Part shown: positions 6,821 through 55,592 of the stretch, piece by piece | Layout of the letters: each line of letters begins with the position of its first letter | Numbering within the stretch: position 1 is the stretch's first letter | Assembly: GCA_017881265.1 (NCBI GenBank) | Contig: JADGRA010000014.1 | Coordinates: 1 to 64,000 of the forward strand | Source of the DNA: Myxococcaceae bacterium | GTDB taxonomy: Bacteria > Myxococcota > Myxococcia > Myxococcales > Myxococcaceae | Direction of reading: 5' to 3' | DNA length: 64,000 nucleotides | The notes under the pieces: generated by a model | Told to the model about the DNA's origin: nothing | What the model saw: the letters and a program-made list of their open reading frames with translations, nothing else | The model's database searches: none | Made by a program: the position numbers and the translations under genes

Positions 6821-6850
6821 TTGACATCTGATGCGGCAACGGCTCAAACT
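6821..6850 (+). promoter_or_regulatory. Possible sigma-70-type promoter of vapBC
   Basis: TTGACA at 6821-6826 is followed after 18 bp by CAAACT (6845-6850), a moderate -10. The predicted start would be almost at the vapB ATG (6858), so the transcript would be nearly leaderless. The local sequence (ATTAATC) is unusually AT-rich for this window. Confidence 0.3.
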
Positions 6851-6857
6851 ATTAATC

Positions 6858-7106
6858 ATGCCACGGACAACAATCGACATCGATGCCCCCATCCTTCGCG
6901 ATCTGAAGAAGCTGCAGAAGCGCGAGGGGAAGCCCCTCGGGCGGCTTGTCAGCGAACTCTTGGCACTCGCGCTCCGCCGTGAGAAAGCCCCGCCGCCAGT
7001 CCCCTTCCGCTGGACGGCGCGCGCGATGGGCGCCCCGCTCGTGGACCTCGGCGACAAGGACGCACTCTGGGCAGCCCTAACGGCTGTCGACGCGCCACGG
7101 CGATGA
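6858..7106 (+). CDS. vapB: VapB-type antitoxin
   Basis: This 82-residue protein starts at ATG 6858. The N-terminus MPRTTIDIDAPILRDLKKLQ is a ribbon-helix-helix DNA-binding motif (strand followed by helices). A hinge (LGRLVSELLALALRREK) and a toxin-binding tail follow. The toxin gene starts within its stop codon (ATGA), so the two are translationally coupled. By analogy with the family it should neutralise the PIN-domain toxin and autorepress the operon. It is cargo of the tRNA-Glu element. Confidence 0.8.
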   Translation: MPRTTIDIDAPILRDLKKLQKREGKPLGRLVSELLALALRREKAPPPVPFRWTARAMGAPLVDLGDKDALWAALTAVDAPRR

Positions 7107-7540
7107 GCTTTGCCCTCGACGCCAACGTTCTGCTGTACGCCTCGAACACGGCAAGCCCTGAGCACATGCGCGCACGCGATTTTCTTTCGGCCTGCGCCAG
7201 AGGCACCGAGTTGCTCTGCCTGGGCTGGCCAACGCTGATGGCCTACCTCCGGATTAGCACCCACCCCGCCATTTTCCCGACCCCATTGAGCCAGGGCGAG
7301 GCCGAGGGCAACATCCATGCACTGCTCCAGCTTCCTCACGTTCGGGTGGTCTCCGAGCTGGACGGGTTCTGGGAGGTCTACCGTGAGGTCTCCGCGACAA
7401 CTCGCGCACGGGGCAACCTCGTTCCGGATGCCCACCTCGCGGCAATCCTGAAGCAGAACGGCATCGCGACCCTCTGCACGAACGACTCGGACTTTCGCCG
7501 GTTCGATTTCCTCGAGCTGCGAAACCCGTTCTCACCATAG
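7103..7540 (+). CDS. vapC: VapC-type PIN-domain ribonuclease toxin
   Basis: This 145-residue PIN-domain protein starts at ATG 7103, overlapping the vapB stop by 4 bp. The acidic residues expected for the metal site are visible: Asp in FALDANVLLY, Asp in LVPDAHLAAI and Asp in CTNDSDFRRFD. The segment GWPTLMAYLRISTHPAIF is typical of chromosomal VapC toxins. The family cleaves RNA, often tRNA or rRNA; the target here is unknown. It lies immediately before the right copy of the tRNA-Glu repeat and is intact. Confidence 0.85.
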   Translation: MSFALDANVLLYASNTASPEHMRARDFLSACARGTELLCLGWPTLMAYLRISTHPAIFPTPLSQGEAEGNIHALLQLPHVRVVSELDGFWEVYREVSATTRARGNLVPDAHLAAILKQNGIATLCTNDSDFRRFDFLELRNPFSP

Positions 7541-7554
7541 GAAGACCACGTTCC

Positions 7555-7580
7555 CGGGTTCGAATCCCGGCAGGGTCACT
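7555..7580 (+). repeat. att-like direct repeat, right copy
   Basis: This is an exact 26-bp copy of 3972-3997, the T arm and acceptor 3' strand of tRNA-Glu. No 5' half of a tRNA precedes it, because the vapC 3' end is directly upstream. It is therefore an att scar and not a second tRNA gene. Confidence 0.8.
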
Positions 7581-8080
7581 CGCAGCACTCTGTTTCAGAG
7601 GAGAAGTCGACCCGCATCAATAACTGGCAGCACAGTTGGCAGCAGACGAGCCGAATTTAGCGCGCGCCTTGCTCGGTGGCGCCGCTGATTCGGCTTGGGC
7701 AAGGTGAGCTTCGCCGTCGAGTACGTACGCCTACGACGCACCGACTGCGGGCAGCGACAAGCCGCGACTGCTGAGGGTTCCGCGGCGCCCGCTTCCGTGT
7801 TTCGGCAAGTTCCCGCGTGCCCTTGCTTCGTCAGGCCGAGGACCGCGCCCTTGCGCATTCCCGTGTTGAGCGCAGTGACAAAGACGGGACGCGATCTCGT
7901 CGGAAGCTGCTCGAGCATGGGGAATCTCCGCCGATCTCGGGTAGTCGGACACGACACTCTTTGTCTGGCGACGCTTCCGGCCTTGCGTCAACAAGCGGAA
8001 AGCTCAAGCCGCGACGAGGAATGCCCTGCTGGATGCCTGCCTGAGGCTGCTGCGGTGAAGGCGCCACAGCAACCGCGGGC
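7581..8080. other. Degraded integration-site region
   Basis: There is no intact gene between the right tRNA-Glu repeat and the tRNA-Asp fragment. The region contains the integrase remnant. On the minus strand there is also a short frame that ends in AKFGSSAANCAASY near 7615, possibly the C-terminus of the same decayed integrase gene. Confidence 0.4.
7823..7918 (-). pseudogene. Tyrosine recombinase (phage integrase) fragment
   Basis: A short minus-strand frame reads RSRPVFVTALNTGMRKGAVL, closely resembling the box around the first catalytic Arg of phage integrases (ALxTGMRxGEIL). The conserved Glu after the Gly is replaced. No HxxR or Tyr box follows in any frame that I can see. It is a decayed integrase, which fits the att repeats on either side. 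Confidence 0.5.
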
Positions 8081-8122
8081 CTGTCACGCCGGAGGTCACG
8101 GGTTCAAGTCCCGTACTCCTCG
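8081..8122 (+). pseudogene. 3' fragment of a tRNA-Asp gene (att scar)
   Basis: The sequence holds an anticodon loop CTGTCAC (anticodon GTC, Asp), the 3' anticodon strand, a perfect T arm (ACGGG-TTCAAGT-CCCGT) and a 3' acceptor strand. Upstream there is no matching 5' acceptor strand or D arm. It is therefore the 3' half of a tRNA-Asp, as left by an element that integrated at such a gene. Confidence 0.55.
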
Positions 8123-8160
8123 CTAGCCAAGCATCAGAAGTCGCTGGGAATTTTCGATTT

Positions 8161-8234
8161 GGGCTGCATCATGACTATCGCCGCGCCGCGTGAGCCGTGA
8201 ATGACGCTCGGGTGAACAAAGTAGCCAACACGGG
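8161..8234 (+). mobile_element. IS end fragment (same IS as 9195-10319)
   Basis: These 74 bp match the transposase 3' end and terminal repeat of the complete IS at 9195-10319 with two mismatches, in the opposite orientation. They encode the last residues [10 protein letters not shown] and the terminus AAAGTAGCCAACACGGG. The remainder of this copy is deleted. Confidence 0.8.
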
Positions 8235-8346
8235 CGGCCCGCTTCGAGTCGACTGGGAGCGGTGGCAATCCGAGGTGAATGCTGCGTCAACTGTGCTCCA
8301 TTCATCGATGGAAAAGGTTCTGCCCTCGCAGCCGGAGTTCACCTCA

Positions 8347-8772
8347 ATGAGTACATTCGAGACCCGAATCACGCTGCTGTTTATTCTCGGAATGCCGCTC
8401 CTCGCGGCCGCCGCAGCGTCCGGCGAAGTCCCTGCGCCCTGCCAGGTGCTCTCCGCCGAGGTGTGGAGCAGCATCATGGGGTACACGGCGACCGCCACAC
8501 CCGGTGACATGCTCTGCACCTACGAGAGCAAGAGTGGCGGAGGGCAGTTCCGGATCATGGCCGTCGTGGGCACGAGCGCCGAGGCTGAGGCCGGCGCGAA
8601 GCGCATCCGAGACCTGCAACCGAAGGGCAATCCCAATGCGTGGCGAGGCGTCGTGGAAACCCAGGGCTCCGTCATCTTCAGCATCTCATTGTTCCAGGCC
8701 GCGCCGACCGACAGTACCGCCTCCCAGCTACAGAAGCTCGTCGCTGCCGCGAAGCAGAAACTACCGAAGTAG
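8347..8772 (+). CDS. Secreted hypothetical protein
   Basis: This is a 141-residue protein from ATG 8347. A Sec signal peptide (ITLLFILGMPLLAAAAASG) is followed by a compact domain with two Cys (APCQVLS and MLCTYES) that could form a disulfide. The layout is loosely similar to DUF3558-like small secreted proteins, but no assignment is safe. The frame stays open upstream into the IS end at 8161-8234; the MSTFETR start is preferred because the signal peptide follows it directly. It lies between two inverted IS ends. Confidence 0.6.
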   Translation: MSTFETRITLLFILGMPLLAAAAASGEVPAPCQVLSAEVWSSIMGYTATATPGDMLCTYESKSGGGQFRIMAVVGTSAEAEAGAKRIRDLQPKGNPNAWRGVVETQGSVIFSISLFQAAPTDSTASQLQKLVAAAKQKLPK

Positions 8773-9194
8773 CAGGGCAGCCTGTTACAGCGTGGAACTT
8801 GTGGATGGCGGAATTGCCGTTGACGACACGAGCGGCTATTCGGAGCGCCGTTCGGCGCCTGCTATGAGGGAAGGCGGTCCTCGGCGGCGGACGATACTGC
8901 TCAGCCGCAATCTTTGGCTCAGCCACGGTCCTGGTTCGGTCGGCACCAATCTCTAGTCCCCTGGCTGGATGGGAAGCGGGGCGCGCAATTGGCGGGCAAT
9001 TGGACCAACCTAACGCCGCAGACCAGACCTGGGCGAGTTCTGCCCTTGTGCCTTGACTGCTCCGCACCTTTGGATTCCTACGCAATCGCCGACCCGCCCA
9101 TCGTCGCCCTCAAGTTCGTCGGCGGGTCGTAACGGCCTCGGGGAAAGCCGCTGACCTGTGCGGCGTAGCAAGCTAATACCCACCTCCGCGTCCA
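8773..9194. other. Non-coding stretch, no gene seen
   Basis: There are 422 bp between the secreted protein gene and the left end of the complete IS. No frame has convincing composition or a ribosome-binding site, and I see no RNA gene. Confidence 0.4.
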
Positions 9195-9211
9195 CCCGTG
9201 CTGGCTACTTT
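9195..9211 (+). repeat. IS terminal inverted repeat, left
   Basis: Perfect complement of 10303-10319; also present with one mismatch in the remnant ending at 8234. Confidence 0.85.
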
Positions 9212-9235
9212 GTTCATCCGAGCGTCATTCACGGC

Positions 9236-10228
9236 TCACGCGGCGCGGCGATAGTCATGATGCAGCCCATTGAGGACCGGAATCGCGATGACGTCGCCGG
9301 CACGCTCTGGCAATCGAGGGACCGGCTGCTCTTGGTCAATGCCCTGATGCGGACGAACTCCATTGTAGAAGCGCACAAATTCGGCGACCAGGCTTCGGAG
9401 GTGCGGCTCGCTAAATATGAGCACGTGGTCGAGCAGCTCACGACGGAGGGTGCCGACGAACCGCTCAGCGAAAGCGTTCATGTTCGGCGCCCAGGGAGCC
9501 GACCGCACGACGGACGTCCCTTCGAAAGCCCTGACGAAGCAGCGGCCGAACTTCGCGTCACGGTCGCAGACCAGCACCTCGGGTGCGCTCTCTAACGTCG
9601 CGTTCCTTGCTTGCTGTGCACACCAGTCGTCGGTGGGACTGTACGTCACGGCGGCGCGAATGACTTTCCGGCGAGTTAGGTCGAGGAAAAAGAGAACAAA
9701 CACTTGCCGAAACCGCGCGTCGTAGGTCTGCACGAAGTCGCAAGCCCACGTGACGTGGTTGCCGATGAAGGTCGCCCAGCGCTGCCCGTCTCCGGGCGGC
9801 CGCCTCTTCATGTACCTTTGAATGGTTCGCTTCGTCACGTGGATTCCTAGCTTGAGGAGTTCGCCCCGAATTCGCTCCGCGCCCCAGCGGGGATTGTTCG
9901 AGTTCACTTCGCGGATGAGGGCCGCGAGGCCGGTCGGCTTCCGGCCTCTTGGACGGGAGCGCCATCGCCAGAAGAGGCGGAAACCTTCTCGGTGCCACCG
10001 CAGCACCGTTGCCGGCTGGACCAGCGTCACCGCTGTTCGCCACGTCCCGGTCCACCTCGCCAGGACGGCGATGGTCCACTGCTGCGCGGGCGACCAACGC
10101 ACGCGCTTGCCTCTGAGCCGACACTTCGCCACCACCAACTGCTGCCTGAGGAGTTCGTTCTCTGCGACGAGCGAGGCGCGCGAGCGGAGCAGTCCCACCA
10201 CGAATCGCCACAGGGCACCAAGCATCAT
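9236..10228 (-). CDS. IS transposase, integrase-core (DDE) family
   Basis: This 330-residue protein starts at ATG 10228. The N-terminal helices include [16 protein letters not shown], and a helix-turn-helix region contains [19 protein letters not shown]. The rve core has the triad at WACDFVQ (Asp), VCDRDAKFG (Asp) and [20 protein letters not shown] (Glu). The C-terminus HHDYRRAA is shared with the remnant at 8161. It is intact and lies within the 17-bp inverted repeats, so the element may be active. It belongs to a different subgroup from the 5516 transposase but has the same overall layout. Confidence 0.9.
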
Positions 10229-10302
10229 TCCGGTAAGCTACCAGTCTGAACTCCGAAGCTCGGAGGTCTGCGAGCCGGCCGCCGAGAAGCGCGCGGATGG
10301 AG

Positions 10303-10319
10303 AAAGTAGCCAGCACGGG
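10303..10319 (-). repeat. IS terminal inverted repeat, right
   Basis: AAAGTAGCCAGCACGGG on the plus strand, the perfect complement of 9195-9211, on the transposase 5' side. Confidence 0.85.
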
Positions 10320-10612
10320 CCTTCCGCAGCGCTGCAGCGCTGACGAGCGCGAATGGCGGGACCGGGCGGGGCGGTCGGAGGATCGCGCCGCAGTCCCTGC
10401 CGAGGCCTAGGAGCGAGCGGGGCTCCGGGCCCCGTGACCGACGAGCGACGACGGGATCGAGCGCGAAAGCAAGCGAGGACCGACACGACCCGCCCGGTTT
10501 CCGCCATCAGTGCCGTCCTCCCTCGTGGGTTCTGATTCCGAGGGCTGTGCCGGTGGGCTCTGAAGAGGAGACGGTTCGGTGATTAGACTTCGTTCGGGAA
10601 GACGACGAATCC

Positions 10613-11152
10613 ATGAAACCACCATCGAACGTCAAGACGCCAGCGCAATACATCGCCTCACTCCCCGCCGAACGTGCGAAGACGATCGCGACGGTGCGCG
10701 CACTCGTGAACAAGCACATTCCGCGCGGTTACGATGAGTGCCTTGTCTGGGGCACGATCGGCTGGACGATCCCCCTGTCTCGATATCCAGACACTTACAA
10801 TAGGCAGCCCATCTGCTACGTCGCGCTCTCGTCTCAGAAGAGCTACTGCTCGCTCTACCTGATGGGTGCGTTTTGGAGTGCGAGTCAGCTAGAGCAGCTG
10901 AAGGCGGCGTTCAGGGCGGCGGGGAAGAAGCTCGACATGGGGAAGTGTTGCCTTCATTTCGAGTCGCCGGACGATTTGCCGCTCGAGGCGATTGGCAAGC
11001 TGATCTCGGCGATTTCGAGCGAGAAGTGGATCGAGATGTACGAACAATCGCGCTTGATGACCAAGGCGGGGCAGGCGCGGGTGGCGAAGCAAGGCGCCCC
11101 ATCGGCGAGCAAGGTGGCCGCCAAGCGCGTCGACACAAAGCGTCGGCGGTAA
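10613..11152 (+). CDS. DUF1801 (YdhG-like) domain protein
   Basis: This 179-residue protein starts at ATG 10613. The fold follows DUF1801/YdhG proteins: an N-terminal helix (TPAQYIASLPAERAKTIATV), then HIPRGYDECLVWGTIGWTIP, YVALSSQKSYCSLYLMG, and a helical ending with FESPDDLPLEAIGKLI. A basic, low-complexity tail (VAAKRVDTKRRR) ends it. The family is small and cytosolic and its biochemical role is not firmly established. It is monocistronic and lies in the accessory region just beyond the IS. Confidence 0.8.
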   Translation: MKPPSNVKTPAQYIASLPAERAKTIATVRALVNKHIPRGYDECLVWGTIGWTIPLSRYPDTYNRQPICYVALSSQKSYCSLYLMGAFWSASQLEQLKAAFRAAGKKLDMGKCCLHFESPDDLPLEAIGKLISAISSEKWIEMYEQSRLMTKAGQARVAKQGAPSASKVAAKRVDTKRRR

Positions 11153-11278
11153 ACTTTCCCAGCATGACTCGCCGATAGCGGGCCTCCGCCCGAACAACAC
11201 TCCGAACCACCAGATGGCGAAGGCGAGAGCCTCGGGAGTGCGGGACCTCTCTGCCGCGAAGCTGGTCCCGCGGCGCGA

Positions 11279-12421
11279 TCAGAGTCCGGACACCTGCAAC
11301 GTCCAGTCGAAGGTCTGGGTGATTCCCGGCTGGTCGAGCTCGTAGCTTCCGGTTCCGGTTCCGCCGTCCAGAACGTCGGTCCGGGTGCCATTGATGAAGA
11401 ACTCCTCGGGCCAGGTGTACGTGACGACGTTGACCTGCCCGCTGCAGGTGTAGGTGACGGGGAGCTGGAAGATGGCTCCGACGGTGCCCTGGTACTGGCC
11501 GGCCACGTGGGTGTTGTCGGGTGCGAGCCAGACGCCAATCCCGCCATTCTCCGCCTCGGAGACGAGGGTCCCGTCGATGTCCGGCGCAGTCACGGTGCAG
11601 TTCGGCTTCGTCTCCTCGTAGTGGAAGTGGTACGAGCCCATCGACGGGAAGTTGAAGACGCCAGAGCCGGACTCTGTCGGGTCGTACTGCATGTCCAGGG
11701 TCGCCACCGAATCGGTGACGACCACATCGTCTCCCGTGGTTTTCACCTCATGGTGGTGGGCGGTGCCCTGCAGCCTTGGAGCCGAGCAGACCGGTCCCTC
11801 TTGATTCACCAGCGACGTGCGATCGAGTGCGATCAGCATCCCGCCTTGCAGATTGCAGCAGCATTGACAGGCGTCCTTCTGCGCGTCGTCGTATGCCGAC
11901 TGACCGAGCCCGGCCACCAGGCTGTAGTACTTGTTCGCCCGCGCGATGCAGATCCCGTACTCCTGGTTGTTCGAGAAGCAGAGCCCATCGGAACAGCCGG
12001 CCCTGCCCCTCGGGTCGACCGGGTACGCGTTGTTGCAGGACCGGAGGAGATCCTGGAGGAAGGCAGTGTCGCAGGCCGTCTTGTCCTTGTTGCAGGTGCC
12101 GTAGCACCGGTCGTGCTGGTTGCAGCCGCAGGACTGCATCGCGGGGCATCCACCGTTGGCAAAGTCTGCGGCGTTGTATCCCTGGGGAATGACGCCAGCC
12201 TTGATCAGCTTGGAGAACTTCTCCGGCCCGCATCCGTTGACCGTGGGCTGGTAGCCGTCGATCGGCTTCCGGCAGAGAGGCGTGGACGAGGGGCAGGGCG
12301 GACACGACGCGAGATCCGCAACCGGATGCTCGCAGTCCGATATTGCCCTCGCGACGCCCGCCGGAAACGTTGCCGCGGCGAGAAGCAGGAGAGCGGCTCG
12401 CATGGTGGGTCCCGGGCTCAT
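11279..12421 (-). CDS. Secreted phospholipase A2-like protein (group XII-like)
   Basis: This 380-residue protein starts at ATG 12421, overlapping the upstream lipoprotein stop as ATGA; a second ATG at 12403 is possible. A signal peptide (RAALLLLAAATFPAGVARA) leads into a Cys-rich domain. NGCGPEKF at about 62-69 corresponds to the Ca2+-loop region, and CGCNQHDRCYGTC at about 98-110 carries the His-Asp catalytic dyad (H103, D104). KDKTACDTAFLQDLL follows. This order and spacing match eukaryotic PLA2G12, where the core also reads CNQHDRCY. More Cys pairs extend to about 190 (CQCCC). A beta-rich C-terminal domain of about 190 residues has no family that I recognise. It would act outside the inner membrane on phospholipids; activity is inferred. 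Confidence 0.75.
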   Translation of the reverse strand: MSPGPTMRAALLLLAAATFPAGVARAISDCEHPVADLASCPPCPSSTPLCRKPIDGYQPTVNGCGPEKFSKLIKAGVIPQGYNAADFANGGCPAMQSCGCNQHDRCYGTCNKDKTACDTAFLQDLLRSCNNAYPVDPRGRAGCSDGLCFSNNQEYGICIARANKYYSLVAGLGQSAYDDAQKDACQCCCNLQGGMLIALDRTSLVNQEGPVCSAPRLQGTAHHHEVKTTGDDVVVTDSVATLDMQYDPTESGSGVFNFPSMGSYHFHYEETKPNCTVTAPDIDGTLVSEAENGGIGVWLAPDNTHVAGQYQGTVGAIFQLPVTYTCSGQVNVVTYTWPEEFFINGTRTDVLDGGTGTGSYELDQPGITQTFDWTLQVSGL

Positions 12422-12828
12422 CGGTGGAGGGTCAGATCCACGGCGTGGATCGCGAGCGGATAGTCGGCGGGGAATTCGAGCGTCCCGGCGAAGCCGCCGT
12501 CCAGGTCGAACTTCCCCTTCACGAGGAGGTTGGTCGATGTCTGCCAGCTGGCATCGGAGCCACTCCGCGTCCCGGTGATGTCGTCGTCCGGCAAGAAGTC
12601 ACCGGTCGCCTCGTCCTGGACGAGCATCTGGCCGGTCAACTGGCCATTGCTCTCTGCGAGCGCGAACTGGATGCTGACGGACTTGGTGTCGGGGGAGCTC
12701 AACGCCCCCGTCCACGTCGCGGCCACACTGGCGGGCCCCGGAGTCTGCCCGGGGTTGCTGCTCGAGCTGCAGGCGGCGACGAGGAGAAGCACCCCGTTCG
12801 CGGCGATCCTTCCACGAGTGGCTCGCAT
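12418..12828 (-). CDS. Lipoprotein upstream of PLA2-like gene
   Basis: This 136-residue protein has a lipobox (GVLLLVAAC) and a Ser/Pro linker (SSSSNPGQTPGPA). A beta-rich domain follows (WTGALSSPDTKSVSIQFALA, GQLTGQMLVQDEATGDF, FAGTLEFPADYPLAI). Such lipocalin-like or jellyroll-like small lipoproteins are common in myxobacteria; no named family is claimed. The stop overlaps the start of the PLA2-like gene, so the two are translated together. A chaperone, inhibitor or anchor role is possible but speculative. Confidence 0.7.
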   Translation of the reverse strand: MRATRGRIAANGVLLLVAACSSSSNPGQTPGPASVAATWTGALSSPDTKSVSIQFALAESNGQLTGQMLVQDEATGDFLPDDDITGTRSGSDASWQTSTNLLVKGKFDLDGGFAGTLEFPADYPLAIHAVDLTLHR

Positions 12829-13001
12829 GCCCAGGTCCCCTCCTCATCTCGACATGGCGGACATGCCGAGCGTGTCGGCGCAACATATACAATGACCGCG
12901 CGATCGAACGGGAATTGCCACGCCATCTCAGATGCGCCCGAGGGTCCGGTGAGACCCACGACGCCCCTGGCCGTCATCGCCAGCGGGCCGCGTGCCCCGT
13001 G

Positions 13002-13630
13002 AGGTTGGATGCTCCATCGGCGCCCCGGTCACACCGAGAGTCGGGCAGACTTGGACGACGTTCCTCCGGAACCACCGAGATGGCATCGCCGCCATGGACT
13101 TCTTTTCCGTGCCCACCGCGATGTTCCAGGTCCTTCACGTGTTTCTCGTCGTCGGCCACAGCCGGCGCGAGGTGGTCCACTGCGCTGTGACGGCCAGTCC
13201 GACCTCTGCTTGGGTTGCGCAGCAGCTTCGCGAGCCCTTTCCCTTCGAGTCGGCGCCGCGCTTCATCGTCTTCGACCGCGACCCTATTTTCTCAGCTGGT
13301 GTGCCGGGGACGCTGAAATCCATGCTCATCCAACCAACACGCACCAGCTACAGGAGTCCCTGGCAGAACGGGGTCGCCGAACGGTTAGTCGGAACCGTCC
13401 GCCGAGAGTTACTCGACCACGTCATCGTCCTCAACGAGCGCCACCTCCGGCGCCTGCTCGACTCGTTCATCGGCTATTACCATCTAGACCGCACGCACCT
13501 TTCCCTAAACAAGGACTCTCCACGCGGACGTGCGGTGGAGCGGCGTCCCGGCGCGACAAGCAGCGTCGTCAGCCTCAGCCGAGTCGGCGGCCTCCATCGC
13601 CGCTACGCTTGGCGCCGAGCGGCGGCGTAG
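13002..13630 (+). pseudogene. Transposase C-terminal fragment (IS remnant)
   Basis: About 200 residues match the C-terminal 60% of the 5516 transposase. TWTTFLRNHRDGIAAMDFF aligns with TWRNFLRNHLSQAAAMDFF, the second Asp lies in FIVFDRDPIF, and the Glu in [17 protein letters not shown]. The C-terminus GGLHRRYAWRRAA is present. The first 140 residues, including the HTH region, are missing. The copy cannot encode a working transposase. Confidence 0.8.
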
Positions 13631-14208
13631 ACTCTCTGGCCCCGCGCTGTCCTGGGTTACCAGAAGTAGAGGCGCGTCTCGTGGGCGCTCGGGGCCCAAG
13701 CGCCGTCCAATTCACGGACCTCGGGTTCGCGCCGCCGCGTGTTTCGCGTTTGAGCCGCTGTGCCCTGATGGGTTCGCACGCGCTCACACCTACGGAACGT
13801 GAATTGGCGACGCACAACGGCAGCGGGGTCCGGCCCCCCGCTCCCCGTTACCGACGTCGCAACCCCTCGAAATCTGGCGCCGCTGAGGTTTTCGGCAGCC
13901 ACAGGAGTTTGAGGAGACGCTGCACGTCTTCTCCAACAGCTAGGACGCACGCTTGCACATCCTCACGGTGCGTCCGATTTGAGCAGAGATAGTGAGGCTA
14001 CGCCCACCTTCCGCAGAGCGCGCCGTTTCCACTTCTTCAGCGCCCGGGCCCGTGCCAGGCTGACCTTCTCCGTTTCGTCATGGGAGTGGGCGCCACGGCC
14101 GGAGCCGGCTAATGCTCCATAGCGCCGCTGGACCTGTCAATCGGCGCATCCCGAGCTGGGTGACTCCTGCGTATATTGCCGCACTTAGGGGAAGAAGGAG
14201 GCTGCGCC
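13631..14208. other. Non-coding stretch with IS-associated repeat
   Basis: There is no gene in this 578-bp stretch. It contains the inverted copy of the 37-bp repeat (13844-13880) and a 10-bp inverted pair CCAATTCACG (13707) / CGTGAATTGG (13798). It ends with a -10-like TATATT (14172-14177) and the ribosome-binding site of the next gene. Confidence 0.45.
13844..13880 (-). repeat. 37-bp inverted repeat, copy 2
   Basis: Exact reverse complement of 5434-5470. It lies about 210 bp beyond the 3' end of the transposase fragment, whereas copy 1 lies 45 bp before the 5' end of its relative. Confidence 0.6.
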
Positions 14209-14391
14209 ATGTCTTTTGTTCTCTATGTGGTGGGATTTCTAGTCGTCATCGCCGGCGTAGCTTGGGGCCTCATTAAGGTGGGAGCACCCACCCAATGGGT
14301 GATCATCGCCTCCGTCGTCTTGCTCGGGATCGGGATCCTGACCGGGGTGACCCGTACTCGCTCCAAAGACCCTCCCGACCCCTCGGCCTGA
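14209..14391 (+). CDS. Small two-helix membrane protein
   Basis: This 60-residue protein starts at ATG 14209 behind a strong ribosome-binding site (AAGAAGGAGG, 14192-14201). It consists of two membrane helices (VLYVVGFLVVIAGVAWGLI and WVIIASVVLLGIGILTGV) and a short polar tail. The first helix is Gly/Val rich. It stands alone, with no cotranscribed neighbour. I recognise no family; it resembles the many small inner-membrane peptides of unknown role. Confidence 0.65.
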   Translation: MSFVLYVVGFLVVIAGVAWGLIKVGAPTQWVIIASVVLLGIGILTGVTRTRSKDPPDPSA

Positions 14392-14723
14392 GGCACGGAG
14401 AGCTCGATCGGCAAGGACAGCGATTCATCCACTCCAGCATCGCAGAAGAAGGGGCACATCCTTCCCCACTGCCGACTCAGGGCGCAGAGTTACAGCTCCC
14501 GTCCCCTGTCAGGCCCCGCGAACGAGGCGCTCCCGCGACGACCGTAGACCCGCGGCCACGACCCCTGCGAGAGCGGGTCGGGCGCGAGGGACACGGGGCG
14601 ATGGGGGGGATCCGTCCCGTGGCCGCGGCGAGAGTAATCACGGGGATGGGCGCGCGCAGCCGTCTCGGGTGGCGGACTGTCAGCCCGCGGAATTGGTCTA
14701 GGCTTCTTGCGCAGGGGGAACCG
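14392..14723. other. Non-coding stretch with GC-rich inverted repeats
   Basis: No gene is seen in this 332-bp stretch. CGCGGCCACG (about 14551-14560) and its complement CGTGGCCGCG (about 14619-14628) could pair and enclose a smaller hairpin, but there is no U-tract or other sign of a defined RNA. Confidence 0.35.
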
Positions 14724-15114
14724 ATGGTTTGCTTGCTCTTGCTCCTCGCTCTCGTCGCCGGGGCAAAAGCCCGAGTCGAAGGTCGTTACCGCGTCCCGGA
14801 AGAAAGCCTTCCAGGCTGCCGTCGAGCAGCAGGCGAAGATCTTCGTCCTCCAACTCTTGGAGGACCTGGCGTGCGTCGAGGGCAGCCCGTGGCCGACGAC
14901 AGAATGCGCTTTGGCGCAGAAGCAGGTCGACGACGCGAAGTCCGACCAAGACTTGATCCTGCAAGAGCACGCCCCGTACGCGCGATGCGAGGTGCTATGG
15001 GTATCGAGCGCCGCGGAGAGAAGCGCGGCAAAAGAGATGCGCGCCAGATCGGACGCGGGCCTCGCATTCGTCCTCGACGCCGGATCATTGCTGCTCAGGC
15101 ATCCCCGGACGTGA
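14724..15114 (+). pseudogene. Secreted protein gene with frameshift
   Basis: ATG 14724 follows a GGGGGA Shine-Dalgarno and opens a clear signal peptide (MVCLLLLLALVAGAKA). After about 14 codons the good coding composition moves to the +1 frame: KPESKVVTASRKKAFQAAVE, then AKIFVLQLLEDLACVEG, with three more Cys. A single extra base in the GGGGCAAAA run near 14760-14766 would explain this. The gene is either a recent pseudogene or carries a sequence error. The reconstructed protein of about 129 residues would be secreted; its family is unknown. Confidence 0.45.
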
Positions 15115-15397
15115 CCGTCGATGGGCACAACCTTCGCAGGAACGGCCGTCCGGATTGCAGTCTAGTGCGCGTCCACAGGTGAGAGCCGCCTGGTCGGCGA
15201 AACGACCCTGGATGCGAAGGGCGTCGCCCTAGGCTCCGGGCCCAGGGCGTTGTGAGGGCGACCTGGACGTGGCCAGCAATTGCGGGGCGGCCACCGCGGA
15301 GAGAATCAGCCATGGCTGAGACGCAATAGCTGCACTCCGTGCGACTGGAACCCCTCTAACCGCAACTCCTTCACGCGCTTTCCGCCTCCTGGAGGGA

Positions 15398-15787
15398 ATG
15401 ACTCTGAAACTCGGAATCCTCTTCAGTGCGAATGCCATCGTCGCGATGGCTTTCGGTATCACTGCAACACGTGTCCCGACAGAACTGCTCGCCGCATTTG
15501 GCATCACTCACGCTCACGCCAGGCACGGCCCTCGTTGCGCGCCTAGCCGGCGTCCCTTTGTGGGCCTCGGCATCTTGAGCTGGCTCGTGCGCGCTGCACC
15601 CCCCTCGGTGGCGCTGCATTCAACTGTTATGGCCCGCTTCATTGGCGAGACCCTGGGCTTTCTTGTGTCTGTGCACGGCGTCCAGTCGGGCGCATCCAAC
15701 GCACTCGGCTGGTCCGTCCTCGCACTTTTCGGTCTTCCGGGCGGGCTTCGCCTTTGCGAAATGTTATCGGTTGGGACGCGGGCCTGA
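15398..15787 (+). CDS. Small multi-helix membrane protein with compensating frameshifts
   Basis: This 129-residue frame starts at ATG 15398, behind TGGAGGGA. It starts with a membrane helix (MTLKLGILFSANAIVAMAFG) and ends with two or three more. Residues 38-53 (HAHARHGPRCAPSRR) look wrong, whereas the neighbouring frame over the same bases reads TLTPGTALVARLAGVP, exactly what such proteins have at this place. An extra base near 15507-15511 and a lost base near 15555-15560 would cause this. The reading frame is preserved overall, so a protein is still made. The family resembles DUF4345-like four-helix proteins. Confidence 0.5.
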   Translation: MTLKLGILFSANAIVAMAFGITATRVPTELLAAFGITHAHARHGPRCAPSRRPFVGLGILSWLVRAAPPSVALHSTVMARFIGETLGFLVSVHGVQSGASNALGWSVLALFGLPGGLRLCEMLSVGTRA

Positions 15788-15922
15788 CTATGAGCCCTGC
15801 GGTGGCAACCAAGTGACACAAAACTCCGGCCCACTGGCCCTGAGCTCCTGCGCGGACCATCCTCTCAGAATATCGGCTCGCAAAATGCAAGTGCGGGTGG
15901 CTAACATCTTGCGAGGTGCGCC

Positions 15923-16171
15923 ATGAGCCTAACTGACGCGGTGCAGCGAGCTGCCTTTTCCCCGGAACACCTCGAGGACCTTGATGCTTCCCCCGGCTTT
16001 ATCGCCTCGGGGATGGGGGAAGACGGGCAGACCTGCCGACGCTGTGAAGGAAAAGGCTGGTTTCAGTGGCATGGCGTGGCGCGATGGTGCCACCCGTCAT
16101 GCATTGCGCCGCACGTCGATGTCGACCTCCTCTGTACCCTTGAGGCGCGGAGCCAAATTCTGGGGCTTTAA
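15923..16171 (+). CDS. Small Cys-rich hypothetical protein
   Basis: This 82-residue frame starts at ATG 15923. The central part, CRRCEGKGWFQWHGVARWCH, followed by PSC gives two Cys pairs with a His and could bind zinc. The rest is acidic and helical. The ribosome-binding region is weak (GAGGTGCGCC). The composition fits coding, but I cannot place it in a family and the call is moderate. Confidence 0.4.
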   Translation: MSLTDAVQRAAFSPEHLEDLDASPGFIASGMGEDGQTCRRCEGKGWFQWHGVARWCHPSCIAPHVDVDLLCTLEARSQILGL

Positions 16172-16295
16172 GGCTCCCCCTGTCGGAGCGAGTCCTTTGG
16201 CACGGTCCACCTAGCGAGCATCCGGGGTCCCGTCGCTTCAACCGCTCCGATTTGCGGTTTGGTTCATCGCGTTCCGTAGCGCCTCCTCGGGCCGG

Positions 16296-16817
16296 TCACC
16301 GTCTGGCCTCCGCGCTGAGCGGTCGGAAGCGACTGTGCGGTGCGCGGACGCCAGTACCCCAGTCGTAGACGACCACCGTTCCAGCCAGAAGGTCGTGCAG
16401 GGCCCGCCGGCGCTCGGTCACCAGGACCATCAGGAAGCCAATCCCAAGCGTCGACGCGCTCAGAACGAGTCCAATGAACCGCTTCAGCGCAACCAACAGG
16501 CCCACTTTTCCACCGTCGGCCCGGAGAACCCGCAGACCCAGGAGCGCCATGCCTGGCGTCTGCCCGGTGATGGTCCAGAAGCCGACGCGGTACAGCGGCG
16601 AGAACACGAGCCCGACCACCGGGGCCACGTACGGAATGAACTGGCAGAGGTGACGGCGCAACTGCCACCACGCTTGCGCCGGTGGGCAACGTTGAGGGTC
16701 GAGCAGCACGAGCTGCTGCGCCAGCCAGCTCGTGCCAGCTACCAGGACCGCCAGCAGCACGAGGTCCAGCACGAGCGCCGCTCCACGACTCGCCAGACCG
16801 GCGTATCGGCGCGTCAT
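16296..16817 (-). CDS. RDD-family membrane protein
   Basis: This 173-residue protein starts at ATG 16817, overlapping the upstream stop as ATGA. The RDD signature is present: RRYAGLASRGAALVLDLVLL (Arg and Asp), then a second helix, the conserved GQTPGMALLGLRVLR, and RRRALHDLLAGTVVVY. RDD proteins are inner-membrane proteins, proposed in some cases to be ion exchangers; the role here is open. It is coupled to the helical protein encoded just upstream, a pairing I have seen described in several bacteria. Confidence 0.85.
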   Translation of the reverse strand: MTRRYAGLASRGAALVLDLVLLAVLVAGTSWLAQQLVLLDPQRCPPAQAWWQLRRHLCQFIPYVAPVVGLVFSPLYRVGFWTITGQTPGMALLGLRVLRADGGKVGLLVALKRFIGLVLSASTLGIGFLMVLVTERRRALHDLLAGTVVVYDWGTGVRAPHSRFRPLSAEARR

Positions 16818-17305
16818 GATCTCCTCAGCACACGACGAACCCAAAACTCGACCGCGTCATCGGCATCGAGCGCAGCGGCACGCACTCGCTCCTGGAAGTC
16901 GCGCGCCATCCCGCGGCTCTGGTCCTGGATGAGCTGCTGGACCGGCTCCGGATGTTCAGTGAGGTACTCCAGGTAGGCGCCAGCCTGTTCGCGCACCAGC
17001 TGGCGGAGGGCCTCGCTTTTCTCCAGCGCCTGCAGCACTCGCCCGACCTGTCGGTCCACCAGGGCGTCGATAGCCGGGCTGCCCTCGAGCCGTGTCAGCA
17101 GCCGGACCACCAGTTGCTCCAGCGCCGGGCTCTCCATGAGCGCCTGAAGCACGCGCTCGATAAGCGCCCCGGCGAGCCGCGTGTCGACCAGACGCGTCAC
17201 TAGGGCATCTGCCACCTGGCCGGCAAGTCCGGAGCGCTGCCCGCCGGGGGGCTCGCCGTCGCTTGGATCCGCTTCCGGGGAACGCACGCGGGAGAACGGT
17301 AGCAC
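16814..17305 (-). CDS. Helical repeat protein paired with RDD protein
   Basis: This is a 163-residue soluble protein made almost wholly of amphipathic helices. It has a repeating pattern of Leu/Val-rich segments ending in Pro-Ala or Glu (ESPALEQLVVRLLTRLEGSP, then VDRQVGRVLQALEKSEALRQ). The first 25 residues are Pro/Gly rich. The RDD gene starts inside its stop. I see no known domain. The repeats and coupling suggest that it binds or regulates the RDD membrane partner. Confidence 0.7.
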   Translation of the reverse strand: MLPFSRVRSPEADPSDGEPPGGQRSGLAGQVADALVTRLVDTRLAGALIERVLQALMESPALEQLVVRLLTRLEGSPAIDALVDRQVGRVLQALEKSEALRQLVREQAGAYLEYLTEHPEPVQQLIQDQSRGMARDFQERVRAAALDADDAVEFWVRRVLRRS

Positions 17306-44794: not shown

Positions 44795-46207
44795 TTAGGC
44801 CGGCTTCTTTGCGGGAACTGCCGTCCCGGCAGGCCCAGGGTCAGCCGAGTAGGCTTGAACGCCCATCTCCGAGAGGTCGAGGCCGGCGACCTCCTCCTCG
44901 GCCGAGACCCGGTTCCCGACAGCCTTTCCAACCAGCCAGAAGGCCAGGGAAGCCGCCCCAGCGACGAAGGCAATGTTGGCAAGAATTCCGACCACCGAGG
45001 CGACGAGCTGGCCACCGTCTCCGTAGAAAAGGCCCGTCACACCGCCGGCGATCCCGTTGAGGCCCTCTCCGTAGGTGCCATTCGCGAAGAGCCCGAGCGC
45101 AAGGACGCCCCATGCGCCGCTCACGCCGTGCACCGCAGAGGCGCCGACCGGGTCGTCGATGCGCAGCCGCACTTCGATGAAGGCGGTGGCGACAATTGCT
45201 AAGATGCTGCCCGTCGCTCCTACCAACACGGCGGCCCAGGCGGAGACGAAGGCACACGAGGCGGTGATGGCGACCAAGCCAGCCAGCATTCCGTTGGCGA
45301 GCCACGAAGGGTCCGCCCTGCCCCACCGGGTCTTCACGTAGACGTAGGCGGCGAACGCTCCAGCGGCGCCCGCCAGCATCGTGTTGGCGGCCACCACCGC
45401 GAGACGGATGTCCATGGCTGAGCGCGTGGAGCCGGCGTTGAAGCCGAACCAGCCGAAGCCGAGGATGAAGGTACCCAGCACGACCTGCGGGATGCTCTGT
45501 GGCGCGATGACGCGAATCCGTCCGTCCGGCAAGTACTTCCCGAGCCTCGGTCCAAGCTGCCTGGCAACGACCAAGGCCGTGACGCCGCCCGTCAGGTGGA
45601 CTGCCGAGCTACCGGCAAAGTCCACGTGGCCGTGGCCGAGGCCAAAGTTCGAGCCGAGCTGGGAGAGCCAACCACCGCCCCAGACCCAGTTGGCGTAGAC
45701 CGGAAACACCAGCGTGGACATGACGAGACTGAAAAGCACCAGGCTCGTGAGTTTCCAGCGCTCCGCCGCCGCCCCCGTGGGAATGGTGACCGCAACACTC
45801 ATGAACACCGTCGCGAAGAGGAACGTTGCGGCGACGCCTGGGGTGTAGGCCGACAGCGGCTGGAGCCCGAAGCCGCTCATGCCAAAGAGCCCGAAACTCT
45901 TGCCAAACAGGCTGATGGTGAACTCCTCGTTCAGAAGGGTCTGGGCGCCGAATGCGCCGCCCCCCCCGCCCATTTCGAGCCCGAAGCCCAACGCGGCGAA
46001 ACCGGTGACGCCGACTGCATAGGCGAGCAGGTTCATCCCCATCGTGTGGGCGGCGTTCTTGGCGCGCGTGAGCCCGGTCTCCACCAGGGCGAACCCCGCC
46101 AGCATGAACATCACCAGAAAGCCAGCCACCATCGTCCAGACGATGTCGAGGGCGGCTTGGGTTTCCGCGAGGCGCTTAGCAAGCTCGGCCACGGTCGGCT
46201 CGGTCAT
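44795..46207 (-). CDS. amt: Ammonium transporter (Amt/MEP/Rh)
   Basis: This 470-residue membrane protein starts at ATG 46207, behind a strong GGAGGAGGAG. Eleven helices with the Amt signatures: FALVETGLTRAKNAAHTMGM, FVYP-like VMSTLVFPVYANWVWGGGWL, the pore region DFAGSSAVHLTGGVTALVVA (first pore His) and IDDPVGASAVHGVSGAWGVL (second pore His). A GWFGFNAGST block is also present. It conducts ammonium or ammonia. It lies 33 bp after urtE on the same strand, so it is probably the last gene of the urea-transporter operon. No glnK is adjacent. Confidence 0.93.
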   Translation of the reverse strand: MTEPTVAELAKRLAETQAALDIVWTMVAGFLVMFMLAGFALVETGLTRAKNAAHTMGMNLLAYAVGVTGFAALGFGLEMGGGGGAFGAQTLLNEEFTISLFGKSFGLFGMSGFGLQPLSAYTPGVAATFLFATVFMSVAVTIPTGAAAERWKLTSLVLFSLVMSTLVFPVYANWVWGGGWLSQLGSNFGLGHGHVDFAGSSAVHLTGGVTALVVARQLGPRLGKYLPDGRIRVIAPQSIPQVVLGTFILGFGWFGFNAGSTRSAMDIRLAVVAANTMLAGAAGAFAAYVYVKTRWGRADPSWLANGMLAGLVAITASCAFVSAWAAVLVGATGSILAIVATAFIEVRLRIDDPVGASAVHGVSGAWGVLALGLFANGTYGEGLNGIAGGVTGLFYGDGGQLVASVVGILANIAFVAGAASLAFWLVGKAVGNRVSAEEEVAGLDLSEMGVQAYSADPGPAGTAVPAKKPA

Positions 46208-46240
46208 GTCTCCTCCTCCACGGATTCGTTTGGCTGCGCC

Positions 46241-46933
46241 TCACACCGCCAGCATCTGCTTCACGCCATCGCGGTCCATGGAGGCACCCGTCCCGCGTTT
46301 CACAATTTCGCCCCGCTGCATCACCAGGTACTGGTCGGCGAGCGACCTGGAGAAGTCGTAGTACTGCTCGACCAGCAGGATGGCCATGGTTCCCTCGGCG
46401 GCCAGCGTCCGAATCGCCCGCTCAATGTCCTTGATGATGGAGGGTTGAATCCCCTCAGTCGGCTCATCCAGGACGAGGAGTCGGGGGCCCATGGCGAGGG
46501 CACGACCAATGGCCAGCTGCTGCTGCTGGCCTCCCGAGAGGTCCCCGCCCCGCCGCCCATGCATCTCGGCGAGCATCGGGAATAGCTCGAAGACGCGGGG
46601 GGGGATGGGTGTCCCGTACGGGCGGGACGCTAGCCCCATCAGCAAGTTTTCCTCCAAGGTGAGCCGGGGGAAAATCTCGCGACCCTGCGGCACGTAGCCA
46701 ATACCGGCGGCTGCGCGGCGGTAGGGCGGGGCGCCCGTGAGGTCCAGACCTTCAAAAGAGACCTGCCCCGAGGCGACCGGGACCAGGCCCATCAGAGCGC
46801 GCAGCAGTGTCGTCTTCCCCGCTCCGTTTCGTCCGAGGAGCGCCGTCACCTGCCCGGGCGGCGCCTCGAAGGAGATGCCTCGCAGGATATGACTGCCACC
46901 GTAGTATTGGTTCAGCCCTTCGACCTTCAGCAT
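46241..46933 (-). CDS. urtE: Urea ABC transporter ATPase UrtE
   Basis: This 230-residue protein starts at ATG 46933. The ATPase motifs are: Walker A LLGRNGAGKTTLLRALMG, Q-loop VPQGREIF, signature DLSGGQQQQLAIGRALA and Walker B LLVLDEPTEGIQPSII. The first residues MLKVEGLNQYYGGSHILRGI are typical of UrtE, a LivF-type subunit. It pairs with UrtD under the UrtB/UrtC permeases. It lies 2 bp after the urtD stop. Confidence 0.92.
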   Translation of the reverse strand: MLKVEGLNQYYGGSHILRGISFEAPPGQVTALLGRNGAGKTTLLRALMGLVPVASGQVSFEGLDLTGAPPYRRAAAGIGYVPQGREIFPRLTLEENLLMGLASRPYGTPIPPRVFELFPMLAEMHGRRGGDLSGGQQQQLAIGRALAMGPRLLVLDEPTEGIQPSIIKDIERAIRTLAAEGTMAILLVEQYYDFSRSLADQYLVMQRGEIVKRGTGASMDRDGVKQMLAV

Positions 46934-46935
46934 CG

Positions 46936-47754
46936 CTATCTTCCCAGGTAGACCTCGATGACGCGCGGATCGGACTGAAGTTCCTCGAGATCGCCCTCGG
47001 CGAGGACCGAGCCCTCATGGAGGACGGTGACCCGGCCACCGAGCCTGGCGATGAAGGCCATGTCGTGCTCGACCACCACCAGCGAGTGCGTCTCCGCCAA
47101 CGACCGGATAAGCTCGCCGGTGCGCTCGGTCTCCTCATCAGTCATTCCCGCCACCGGCTCGTCGAGGAGGAGAAGCCGCGGCTCCTGAACGAGCAGCATG
47201 CCAATCTCCAGCCATTGCTTCTGACCGTGGGAGAGTAGCCCCGCCGGCCGGTGGGCATCATTCTTCAGGTGGATGCGCTCGAGCATCTCGCCAACACGTC
47301 CCTGCGCTTCAGAGTCGAGGCTGCCCCGGAGGCTTCGACGAACTCGTCGATCTCCTTTCATCGCCAGCTCCAGGTTTTCCCGCACCGTGTGTCTCTCGAA
47401 GACGGTGGGCTTCTGGAACTTTCGACCAATGCCTGCCCGGGAGATTTCGGTCTCCGACATCTTCGTCAGGTCGAGGCGCTGGCCGAAGAAAGCGACGCCG
47501 CGATCGGGACGCGTCCTGCCCGTCACCACATCCATCATGGTGGTCTTGCCGGCACCGTTTGGCCCGATGATGCAGCGAAGCTCTCCCACCTTGATGTGCA
47601 GCGTCAATTGGTTGAGTGCGCGGAAACCGTCGAAGAAGACGGTGATGCCCTCAAGGTAGAGGATGACGTCATGGGTAGTGTCGAGTTCCCCAGGGGATAG
47701 CGCGTGCGCCCACGACGGGTGGCCCCCGTGCGGCGCCGTCAGGAGCGGCATCAT
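46936..47754 (-). CDS. urtD: Urea ABC transporter ATPase UrtD
   Basis: This 272-residue protein starts at ATG 47754, which overlaps the urtC stop as ATGA. Motifs: Walker A CIIGPNGAGKTTMMDVVTGR, signature LSHGQKQWLEIGMLL, Walker B LLLLDEPVAGMTDEETERTG and VVVEHDMAFI. The LSHGQ signature and the TGRTRPD loop are characteristic of UrtD/LivG-type proteins. It is the second ATPase of the urea importer. Confidence 0.92.
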   Translation of the reverse strand: MMPLLTAPHGGHPSWAHALSPGELDTTHDVILYLEGITVFFDGFRALNQLTLHIKVGELRCIIGPNGAGKTTMMDVVTGRTRPDRGVAFFGQRLDLTKMSETEISRAGIGRKFQKPTVFERHTVRENLELAMKGDRRVRRSLRGSLDSEAQGRVGEMLERIHLKNDAHRPAGLLSHGQKQWLEIGMLLVQEPRLLLLDEPVAGMTDEETERTGELIRSLAETHSLVVVEHDMAFIARLGGRVTVLHEGSVLAEGDLEELQSDPRVIEVYLGR

Positions 47755-48875
47755 GTGGGTTTCCTCGCGCGCCGGAGACGGCCCACCAGCCCGACCACTC
47801 CCTCGGGAAGCAAGAGCGTCACCAGAATGAAGAGCAGGCCGAGGAAAAATGGCCAGAGCTCCGGGAAGGCCACGGTGAACCAACTCTTAGCCAAATTCAC
47901 GAGCGCGGCGCCCAGCACGGGACCGACCAGCGTTCCCCGCCCTCCGACCGCGACCCAAATGGCAATCTCGATGGAATTGGCAGGCGACATCTCCGAGGGG
48001 TTGATGATGCCGACCTGCGGCACGTAGAGCGCGCCAGCAAGGGCACAGAGGGCCGCCGAGAGCGTCCAGATGAAGAGCTTGTACCAGAGCGGGTCGTAGC
48101 CGAGGAACCTCGCCCTCGGCTCCGCATCGCGAATGGCGGTGAGCACGCGCCCGAAGCGCGAGGACACAAGGTAGCGGCCGAGGACCAGCGTCCCTGTCAG
48201 CAGCGCGGCACTGAGCATGAAAAGCACGGCGCGTGTCGCCGGGGCAGTGATGGGAACACCCAGGATGCGCTTGAAATCGGTGAAGCCGTTGTTGCCACCG
48301 AAACCTGTCTCGTTCCGGAAGAACAGCAGCATGGCGGCGTAGGTCAGCGCCTGGGTGATGATGGAGAAGTAGACACCTCGCACCCGCGAGCGGAAAGCAA
48401 AGAGCCCAAACACGAAAGCCAGCAGAGCGGGCACCGCGACCACCAGGAACAGCGCCCAGAGGAAGTGATTGGTCCCTTCCCAGAACCACGGAAGGTTCTT
48501 CCAGTCGAGGAAGACCATGAAGTCCGGGAGGTCGGACTGGTACACGCCGTCATGCCCAATCGAGCGCATGAGGTACATCCCCAGCGCATAGCCCCCGAGG
48601 GCAAAGAAGAGGCCGTGACCGAGCGAGAGGATGCCGGCGTAGCCCCAGACCAAATCCAAAGCAACGGCGACCACCGCGTAGCACATGATTTTGCCACCCA
48701 CGGTGATGGCGAAGTCCGAGATGTGAAGCCGGCTGCCGGCTGGGGTGAAGAGGTGGAGGGCTGGCAGCACCACCAGGGTTGCGACGGCGAAGGCGACAAG
48801 CCAGAGCCAGGCGGCGCGAGGCGCGGCCGCGAAGTACCGCGCGACAAAGGACCCTCGGCGCGAGGAAGCCGTCAT
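47751..48875 (-). CDS. urtC: Urea ABC transporter permease UrtC
   Basis: This 374-residue protein starts at ATG 48875, 3 bp after urtB; longer upstream readings of the same frame are spurious. About ten helices are present, with the LivM-type features VWGYAGILSLGHGLFFALGG, RSRVRGVYFSIITQALTYAA, GFGGNNGFTDFKRILG and the C-terminal KSWFTVAFPELWPFFLGLLF. Together with UrtB it forms the membrane channel for urea. Confidence 0.92.
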   Translation of the reverse strand: MTASSRRGSFVARYFAAAPRAAWLWLVAFAVATLVVLPALHLFTPAGSRLHISDFAITVGGKIMCYAVVAVALDLVWGYAGILSLGHGLFFALGGYALGMYLMRSIGHDGVYQSDLPDFMVFLDWKNLPWFWEGTNHFLWALFLVVAVPALLAFVFGLFAFRSRVRGVYFSIITQALTYAAMLLFFRNETGFGGNNGFTDFKRILGVPITAPATRAVLFMLSAALLTGTLVLGRYLVSSRFGRVLTAIRDAEPRARFLGYDPLWYKLFIWTLSAALCALAGALYVPQVGIINPSEMSPANSIEIAIWVAVGGRGTLVGPVLGAALVNLAKSWFTVAFPELWPFFLGLLFILVTLLLPEGVVGLVGRLRRARKPT

Positions 48876-48877
48876 CC

Positions 48878-50455: not shown

Positions 50456-50502
50456 GGAAGGGGCGGCAGCCGGGCTAGCCGGCCACCGCCCAGAATCGGG
50501 CC

Positions 50503-51759: not shown

Positions 51760-52231
51760 GTTCCCCCTCCGAGTGAATTACGGACTTTGACGCGGAAAGT
51801 CAGAAGCGTGCCACGCGGGGGCCTCGCCAACTAGGCCCGCCATAGGGGTTCAGTTGCCCCTCAATAAATCTGGGGGTTTGAATCTAGAAGACAGGCTGCA
51901 GAGGGCCCCCTCCACAGAAGGCGCCGAGCCGGGAAGTCCAGCCGGACTGTTCGGCGAATTTCTGTCCAGAGCAGCCCTGCGCCCTCTTTTATGTCGCCCC
52001 TTGGGCGGGGTCTCTCGAGCCGCGCATGGCGCGGGTGCGCACCCGCGCTCGCCTTCCGCACGCCGAGCGCCTGCGCACGGTGCACTCATGGAAGGAGCCT
52101 GCAGGCGCCTGCGCAGCCAGTTGTGCCCCGCACCCGGGGGCGGAGCCGCGAGACGAACGCCCCGGCGTGCCGCTATCATCCCCGCCATCGCAACGAGGCC
52201 GATCGCTTCCGTGCCGTCCCGCCTTGCGCGG
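51760..52231. promoter_or_regulatory. Divergent urt/ure intergenic region
   Basis: The 472 bp between urtA and ureD must hold both operon promoters. I could not identify a convincing nitrogen-regulated (sigma-54/NtrC) site. The best half, TGGCACG at 51813-51807 on the minus strand, lacks the invariant GC of the -12 element. No other gene is evident, though the ureD frame stays open upstream. Confidence 0.5.
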
Positions 52232-53083: not shown

Positions 53084-53094
53084 CCGGAGGTCCC

Positions 53095-53865: not shown

Positions 53866-53868
53866 GTC

Positions 53869-55584: not shown

Positions 55585-55592
55585 GCCTTCCA

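What the first reader, a model, noticed from the sequence alone, without database searches (positions are those of the whole stretch)
11279..12828. Secreted group XII-like phospholipase A2 coupled to a lipoprotein
The PLA2G12-type core (Ca-loop NGCGPxxF, catalytic CNQHDRCY) is visible in an exported 380-aa protein with a novel beta-rich C-terminal domain. The lipoprotein gene upstream overlaps its start, suggesting a dedicated partner. In a possibly predatory bacterium this could act on prey membranes. It lies in an IS-rich, probably acquired region.
Basis: partly seen in the sequence, partly recalled or inferred. Interest (0 to 1): 0.66.

Follow-up and report, generated by a model that had tools for sequence, protein, structure and literature searches.

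The report
Secreted phospholipase with lipoprotein partner
A bacterium of the predatory Myxococcus family carries a gene for an exported membrane-lipid-cutting enzyme (phospholipase A2) that touches a gene for a small lipoprotein, and the same two gene families sit side by side in all five related genomes found with this enzyme, so the lipoprotein is very probably its dedicated partner, most likely a guard that protects the producer.

Summary
P0001 (11279-12421, minus strand, 380 aa) matches Pfam PLA2G12 above the curated cut-off, and a profile of its relatives finds the solved Streptomyces and Tuber PLA2s. The Ca-loop and the His-Asp/Asp catalytic residues are intact. P0002 (12418-12828) is a 136-aa lipoprotein overlapping it by 4 bp. 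The tools added three things. (1) The lipoprotein is a dedicated partner: P0002 relatives lie next to the PLA2 gene in all five other same-family genomes with this domain over the cut-off, in the opposite gene order; they occur in only 7 other genomes of 195. One genome keeps the lipoprotein where a syntenic relative has both genes. (2) Elsewhere in bacteria the domain is often the C-terminal tip of RHS proteins, followed by small membrane proteins or lipoproteins. (3) P0002 is modelled as a compact 8-strand barrel with no Pfam family. Best reading: a PLA2 effector with a membrane-anchored inhibitor (immunity) lipoprotein. Enzyme and pairing are well supported; inhibition is inferred, predation untested. 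Tox-PLA2 is known without a listed immunity family (PMC3482391), so the novelty is the partner.

The parts
11279..12421 (-). P0001: exported phospholipase A2, 380 aa, ATG start overlapping the lipoprotein stop
12344..12421 (-). probable Sec signal peptide, residues 1-26 (an alternative start at M7 leaves it intact)
   Evidence: read from the sequence: MRAALLLLAAATFPAGVARA before ISDC; no signal-peptide program was available
11858..12247 (-). PLA2G12-type domain, residues 59-188
   Evidence: PF06951 37.3 bits; profile match to PLA2 chains 1faz and 4aup; helices 99-107, 114-132, 148-172, pLDDT about 83-93 over most of them
12215..12238 (-). calcium loop NGCGPEKF, residues 62-69
   Evidence: C64 and G65 invariant in 10 relatives
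12110..12115 (-). catalytic H103-D104
   Evidence: invariant in 10 relatives; align with H64-D65 of the S. violaceoruber PLA2
12068..12070 (-). D118, second member of the His/Asp dyad
   Evidence: invariant in 10 relatives; aligns with D85 of the S. violaceoruber PLA2
11282..11788 (-). C-terminal region, residues 212-380, of unknown fold
   Evidence: no Pfam match, no relative in the phylum sample, not similar to the lipoprotein family, pLDDT mostly below 50
12418..12828 (-). P0002: 136-aa lipoprotein, the partner
   Evidence: lipobox LVAAC; relatives adjacent to PLA2 genes
12424..12726 (-). eight-strand barrel domain of the lipoprotein, residues 35-135
   Evidence: AlphaFold mean pLDDT 77, about 90 for residues 51-120; calycin/avidin-like barrels in the PDB
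12418..12421 (-). ATGA overlap of the lipoprotein stop and the PLA2 start
9195..10319 (.). neighbouring complete IS element with 30-nt terminal inverted repeats (transposase 9236-10228, minus strand)
12992..13630 (+). integrase-core (rve_3) ORF on the other flank

Best explanation
The two genes form an effector-inhibitor pair. P0001 is made with a Sec signal, folds with disulfides outside the cytoplasm, and uses the His103/Asp118 dyad and Ca2+ to cleave the sn-2 acyl chain of phospholipids in another cell's membranes. P0002 is a lipoprotein anchored in the producer's envelope that binds the enzyme and blocks it, or keeps it off the cell's own phospholipids until export, as Tli lipoproteins do for Tle phospholipases. 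Shown here: PLA2 family membership with catalytic residues intact, and a conserved two-gene association across the family in both gene orders. Inferred: signal peptide, activity, physical binding, inhibition and target. My confidence is about 0.9 that P0001 is a PLA2-fold enzyme, 0.9 that P0002 is a functional partner, and 0.55 that the partner is an inhibitor or immunity protein.
For: PF06951 over cut-off. A profile of the window protein and 9 bacterial relatives matches solved PLA2 structures 1faz (3e-8) and 4aup (1.6e-7) with the catalytic His-Asp and second Asp aligned. All 10 sequences keep C64, G65, H103, D104, Y107 and D118. P0002 relatives lie directly beside the PLA2 gene in all 5 other same-family genomes with the domain over the cut-off, G103, G112, G119, G138 and G147; the measured gap in G138 is 44 bp. 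Gene order is PLA2 then lipoprotein there but lipoprotein then PLA2 in the window, so the pairing has survived a change of order. G143 is syntenic with G138, keeps the lipoprotein and lacks the PLA2 gene, the pattern of an orphan immunity gene. In unrelated bacteria the same domain ends RHS-type proteins (L012, L014, L015, L016, L062, L064, L072, L073, L074; L016 with 9 RHS repeats), and the next gene is a small membrane protein or lipoprotein in nearly all. The L014 and L016 downstream membrane proteins are homologous (E = 3e-6). [quoted passage not shown]
Against: No binding or inhibition data, and no model of the complex. P0002 is not homologous to the putative immunity proteins of the RHS forms: its family was absent from the 17 non-myxobacterial genomes searched. 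Membrane or lipobox genes are common (43% by the same crude test in the myxobacterial loci), so the RHS pattern is only moderate evidence. P0002 relatives also occur twice in G162 without a PLA2 neighbour. P0001 itself carries no RHS, T6SS or other delivery module; it is a plain Sec-exported protein, which can be an ordinary digestive enzyme. The one PLA2G12-bearing prokaryotic effector candidate found in the literature was not toxic to yeast (PMC11297309).
Confidence: 0.55

Rival explanations
1. P0002 is a lipid carrier: a small lipocalin-like lipoprotein that takes up lysophospholipid or fatty acid released by the PLA2, for nutrition or to limit damage to the producer.
For: The modelled 8-strand barrel resembles calycins, including lipocalin-like proteins and apolipoprotein M in the PDB. 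E. coli Blc, a lipocalin lipoprotein, binds lysophospholipids (own knowledge).
Against: The barrel has only about 100 residues, nearer to avidins than to lipocalins. All Foldseek E-values are 0.007 or worse, and there is no Pfam lipocalin match. A scavenger would not need to be tied to this one gene.
Confidence: 0.2
2. P0002 is a chaperone, anchor or export adaptor that holds the PLA2 at the outer membrane or helps it fold, making a cell-bound enzyme.
For: Conserved operon with an envelope lipoprotein. Membrane-anchored foldases of secreted lipases exist (own knowledge).
Against: The lipoprotein persists without the PLA2 gene in G143, and PLA2-fold enzymes with disulfides generally do not need dedicated foldases (own knowledge).
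Confidence: 0.2
3. Chance neighbours: an ordinary secreted digestive PLA2 next to an unrelated lipoprotein in an IS-rich region.
For: The locus is flanked by IS/integrase genes, and lipoproteins are common.
Against: Adjacency in 6 of 6 genomes, including the window, with P0002 relatives in only 8 of 195 genomes (window included) after dropping one spurious hit. Both gene orders are found.
Confidence: 0.03

Closest known systems
PLA2G12, group XII secreted phospholipase A2 (Pfam PF06951)
   Same: Ca-loop, CNxHDxCY catalytic helix, CD dyad Asp, Cys-rich core; score over the curated cut-off
   Different: Bacterial, with extra Cys pairs, a signal peptide and a 169-residue C-terminal region of unknown fold; matched profile positions are 77-177 of 184
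Tox-PLA2 of polymorphic toxins (Zhang et al. 2012, PMC3482391) and prokaryotic PLA2 (PF09056; S. violaceoruber PLA2, 1FAZ)
   Same: Same fold by profile match; several relatives of P0001 match both Pfam families, L014 over both cut-offs; relatives end RHS proteins
   Different: P0001 is not fused to RHS or another delivery module; no immunity family is listed for Tox-PLA2 in that table
Tle/Tli phospholipase effector and immunity pairs of the type VI secretion system
   Same: Phospholipase beside a lipoprotein gene; Tli are usually periplasmic or lipoproteins (PMC9860674)
   Different: P0001 is a PLA2-fold Sec-exported protein; no Tle alpha/beta-hydrolase, no VgrG or PAAR; P0002 has no sequence relation shown to Tli

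Membership tests
PLA2G12 (PF06951) | profile score over the curated gathering cut-off | tested here: met
   37.3 bits vs 34
PLA2G12 (PF06951) | Ca-loop and catalytic His-Asp plus dyad Asp | tested here: met
   C64, G65, H103, D104, D118 present and invariant in relatives; aligned with the solved PLA2 1faz
PLA2G12 (PF06951) | PLA2 fold with the catalytic helices packed against the Ca-loop | tested here: inconclusive
   Helices 99-107 and 114-132 with pLDDT about 90, but Foldseek put 4aup first only at E = 0.93 and coordinates could not be measured
PLA2G12 (PF06951) | phospholipase A2 activity | not testable with these tools
   needs enzyme assay
Polymorphic toxin (Tox-PLA2) | C-terminal toxin domain on an RHS, filamentous or similar carrier | tested here: not met
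   P0001 is a 380-aa Sec-type protein with no such carrier; its relatives in other phyla do meet it
Polymorphic toxin (Tox-PLA2) | immediately adjacent immunity gene | tested here: inconclusive
   conserved adjacent lipoprotein, immunity function not tested
Tle/Tli | effector delivered by the type VI system, with VgrG or PAAR linkage | tested here: not met
   none of the ORFs scanned by Pfam around the pair (window 6831-16844) is VgrG, PAAR or another T6SS component; Sec-type signal in P0001. The rest of the genome was not searched for a T6SS
Lipocalin / calycin (for P0002) | 8-strand up-and-down barrel with family sequence match | tested here: inconclusive
   barrel predicted, best PDB matches 3wjb, 6cuj, 4iab and avidins at E 0.007-0.1; no Pfam match

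The most novel reading that the evidence does not exclude
P0002 defines a new family of barrel-shaped immunity lipoproteins specific to secreted PLA2G12-type phospholipases of Myxococcaceae, so that a venom-like PLA2 is used by predatory bacteria as a diffusible weapon with its own outer-membrane antidote.
Probability: 0.4. Interest if true: 0.65.

Novelty: new variant of a known kind. Interest (0 to 1): 0.5.

Why it matters
PLA2 toxins were described in bacterial polymorphic toxin systems without a listed immunity family (PMC3482391). A conserved lipoprotein tied to the secreted PLA2G12-type enzyme of myxobacteria gives a concrete candidate that a simple two-gene test can settle. If true, it shows how a predator could release a membrane-destroying enzyme without harming itself, and gives a small protein inhibitor of a PLA2-fold enzyme.

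Tried and rejected
Similarity between the C-terminal region of P0001 and the lipoprotein barrel: none (hhalign probability 0.2%). Relatives of the C-terminal region: none in 195 genomes. Plasmid records: no match for either protein. P0001 in the 60 nearest relatives by single sequence: only itself. Tree of 21 PLA2 domains: unresolved, long branches. P0002 hit in G026: rejected, it lies over the signal peptide and linker of an amylase-like lipoprotein. PDB hits of the lipoprotein profile: mostly antibodies, at E 0.07 and worse, taken as chance. Composition as evidence for acquisition: G+C unchanged. Lipoprotein family in genomes with PLA2G12 domains outside the myxobacteria: none.

Full report
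Observation. The 380-aa ORF P0001 (11279-12421, minus strand) and the 136-aa ORF P0002 (12418-12828, minus strand) are real and overlap by the four bases ATGA. By gene calling on G+C at third positions both look coding (0.85 and 0.88). P0001 matches Pfam PLA2G12 at 37.3 bits, above the curated cut-off of 34. It has a Sec-type start, the Ca-loop NGCGPEKF (62-69), and CNQHDRCY (100-107).

Enzyme. The window protein and nine bacterial relatives, from Actinomycetota, Planctomycetota, Verrucomicrobiota, Pseudomonadota, Elusimicrobiota, FCPU426 and Corallococcus, share invariant C64, G65, C100, H103, D104, C106, Y107, C110, C117, D118, C129, C158 and C185. Their profile finds the solved PLA2s of Streptomyces violaceoruber (1faz, E = 3e-8) and Tuber borchii (4aup, 1.6e-7); the printed alignment puts H103-D104 on His64-Asp65 and D118 on Asp85. 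The group XIV enzymes share a His/Asp catalytic dyad (PMC11525133). Several relatives score for both PF06951 and PF09056, one over both cut-offs, so the bacterial set bridges the eukaryotic group XII and the prokaryotic group XIV families. AlphaFold models the core helices with pLDDT around 90, but the C-terminal 190 residues fail.

Partner. A search of 195 genomes of the phylum with P0002 gave eight other genomes. One (G026) is a chance hit on a linker. Five of the remaining seven (G103, G112, G119, G138, G147) are exactly the other same-family genomes with PF06951 over the cut-off, and in each the lipoprotein gene directly follows the PLA2 gene. The measured gap in G138 is 44 bp. In the window the order is reversed and the genes overlap. 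With one relative per genome of thousands of genes, this cannot be coincidence. G143 keeps the lipoprotein but has no PLA2 gene in the syntenic place, where both flanks align with G138, and none elsewhere in the genome. G162 has two lipoprotein copies without a PLA2 neighbour; its distant PLA2-like protein lies on another contig. Each of the nine family members aligned has a lipobox Cys and a barrel core (W39, G41, G62, G66, G86, W95, G105, G115 invariant). P0002 is modelled as eight strands (pLDDT 77) like calycins and avidins, without a Pfam family.

What the domain does elsewhere. In L012, L014, L015, L016 and L062, L064, L072, L073, L074 the domain sits at the end of RHS-type proteins; L016 carries nine Pfam RHS repeats, the others were judged from the RHS-core end motif by eye. 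The next gene is a small membrane protein or lipoprotein in nearly all of them, often overlapping the stop codon. The background rate of such genes is high (43% by the same crude test in the myxobacterial loci), so this is moderate support only. Zhang et al. list Tox-PLA2 as a toxin domain on RHS carriers, with a dash in the immunity column (PMC3482391). The domain is rare in bacteria: 2 of 274 genomes in the class sampled around L016, 12 of 343 in the phylum of L015, 4 of 338 in that of L012.

Mechanism. The best-supported account is an exported PLA2 whose producer is protected by an envelope lipoprotein that binds it. Tli immunity proteins of T6SS phospholipases are usually periplasmic or lipoproteins (PMC9860674). 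Shown: family, catalytic residues, conserved pairing, retention of a lone lipoprotein. Inferred: signal peptide, activity, binding, inhibition, target. The lipid-carrier reading is the main rival because of the barrel fold; the chaperone or anchor reading ranks beside it.

Context. The pair lies between a complete IS (9195-10319) and an integrase-core ORF (12992-13630). G+C does not differ from the surroundings, and the tree was unresolved, so recent acquisition is possible but not shown.

Verdict. A real PLA2 with a dedicated lipoprotein partner; a new variant of a known kind. The partner family is the new part, and its role is testable with two genes.

Noticed in passing
L014:6323-6601, L016:6237-6521, L012:2646-2945: Small membrane proteins (92-99 aa) overlap the stop codon of RHS-PLA2 genes; those of L014 and L016 are homologous (E = 3e-6). 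They look like immunity proteins for Tox-PLA2.
   Followed up: partly
L082:5626-6807: In G162 a secreted distant PLA2-like domain is followed by repeats that read like hemopexin blades, a different C-terminal module from the window's protein.
   Followed up: no
L065, L067, L069, L070, L071: Five genomes sampled from the phylum of L015 share a small secreted PLA2G12-like protein (138-155 aa) upstream of an aminotransferase-like gene, apparently a conserved housekeeping relative.
   Followed up: no
window 9195-10319: Complete IS element with 30-nt terminal inverted repeats, 90% complementary, around an rve_3 transposase.
   Followed up: yes
window 6831-7540: Probable toxin-antitoxin pair: a short antitoxin-like ORF overlapping a PIN-domain gene.
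   Followed up: partly
window 44795-56252: By eye, ammonium transporter, ABC transporter genes and urease subunit genes lie together; a nitrogen or urea use cluster.
   Followed up: no
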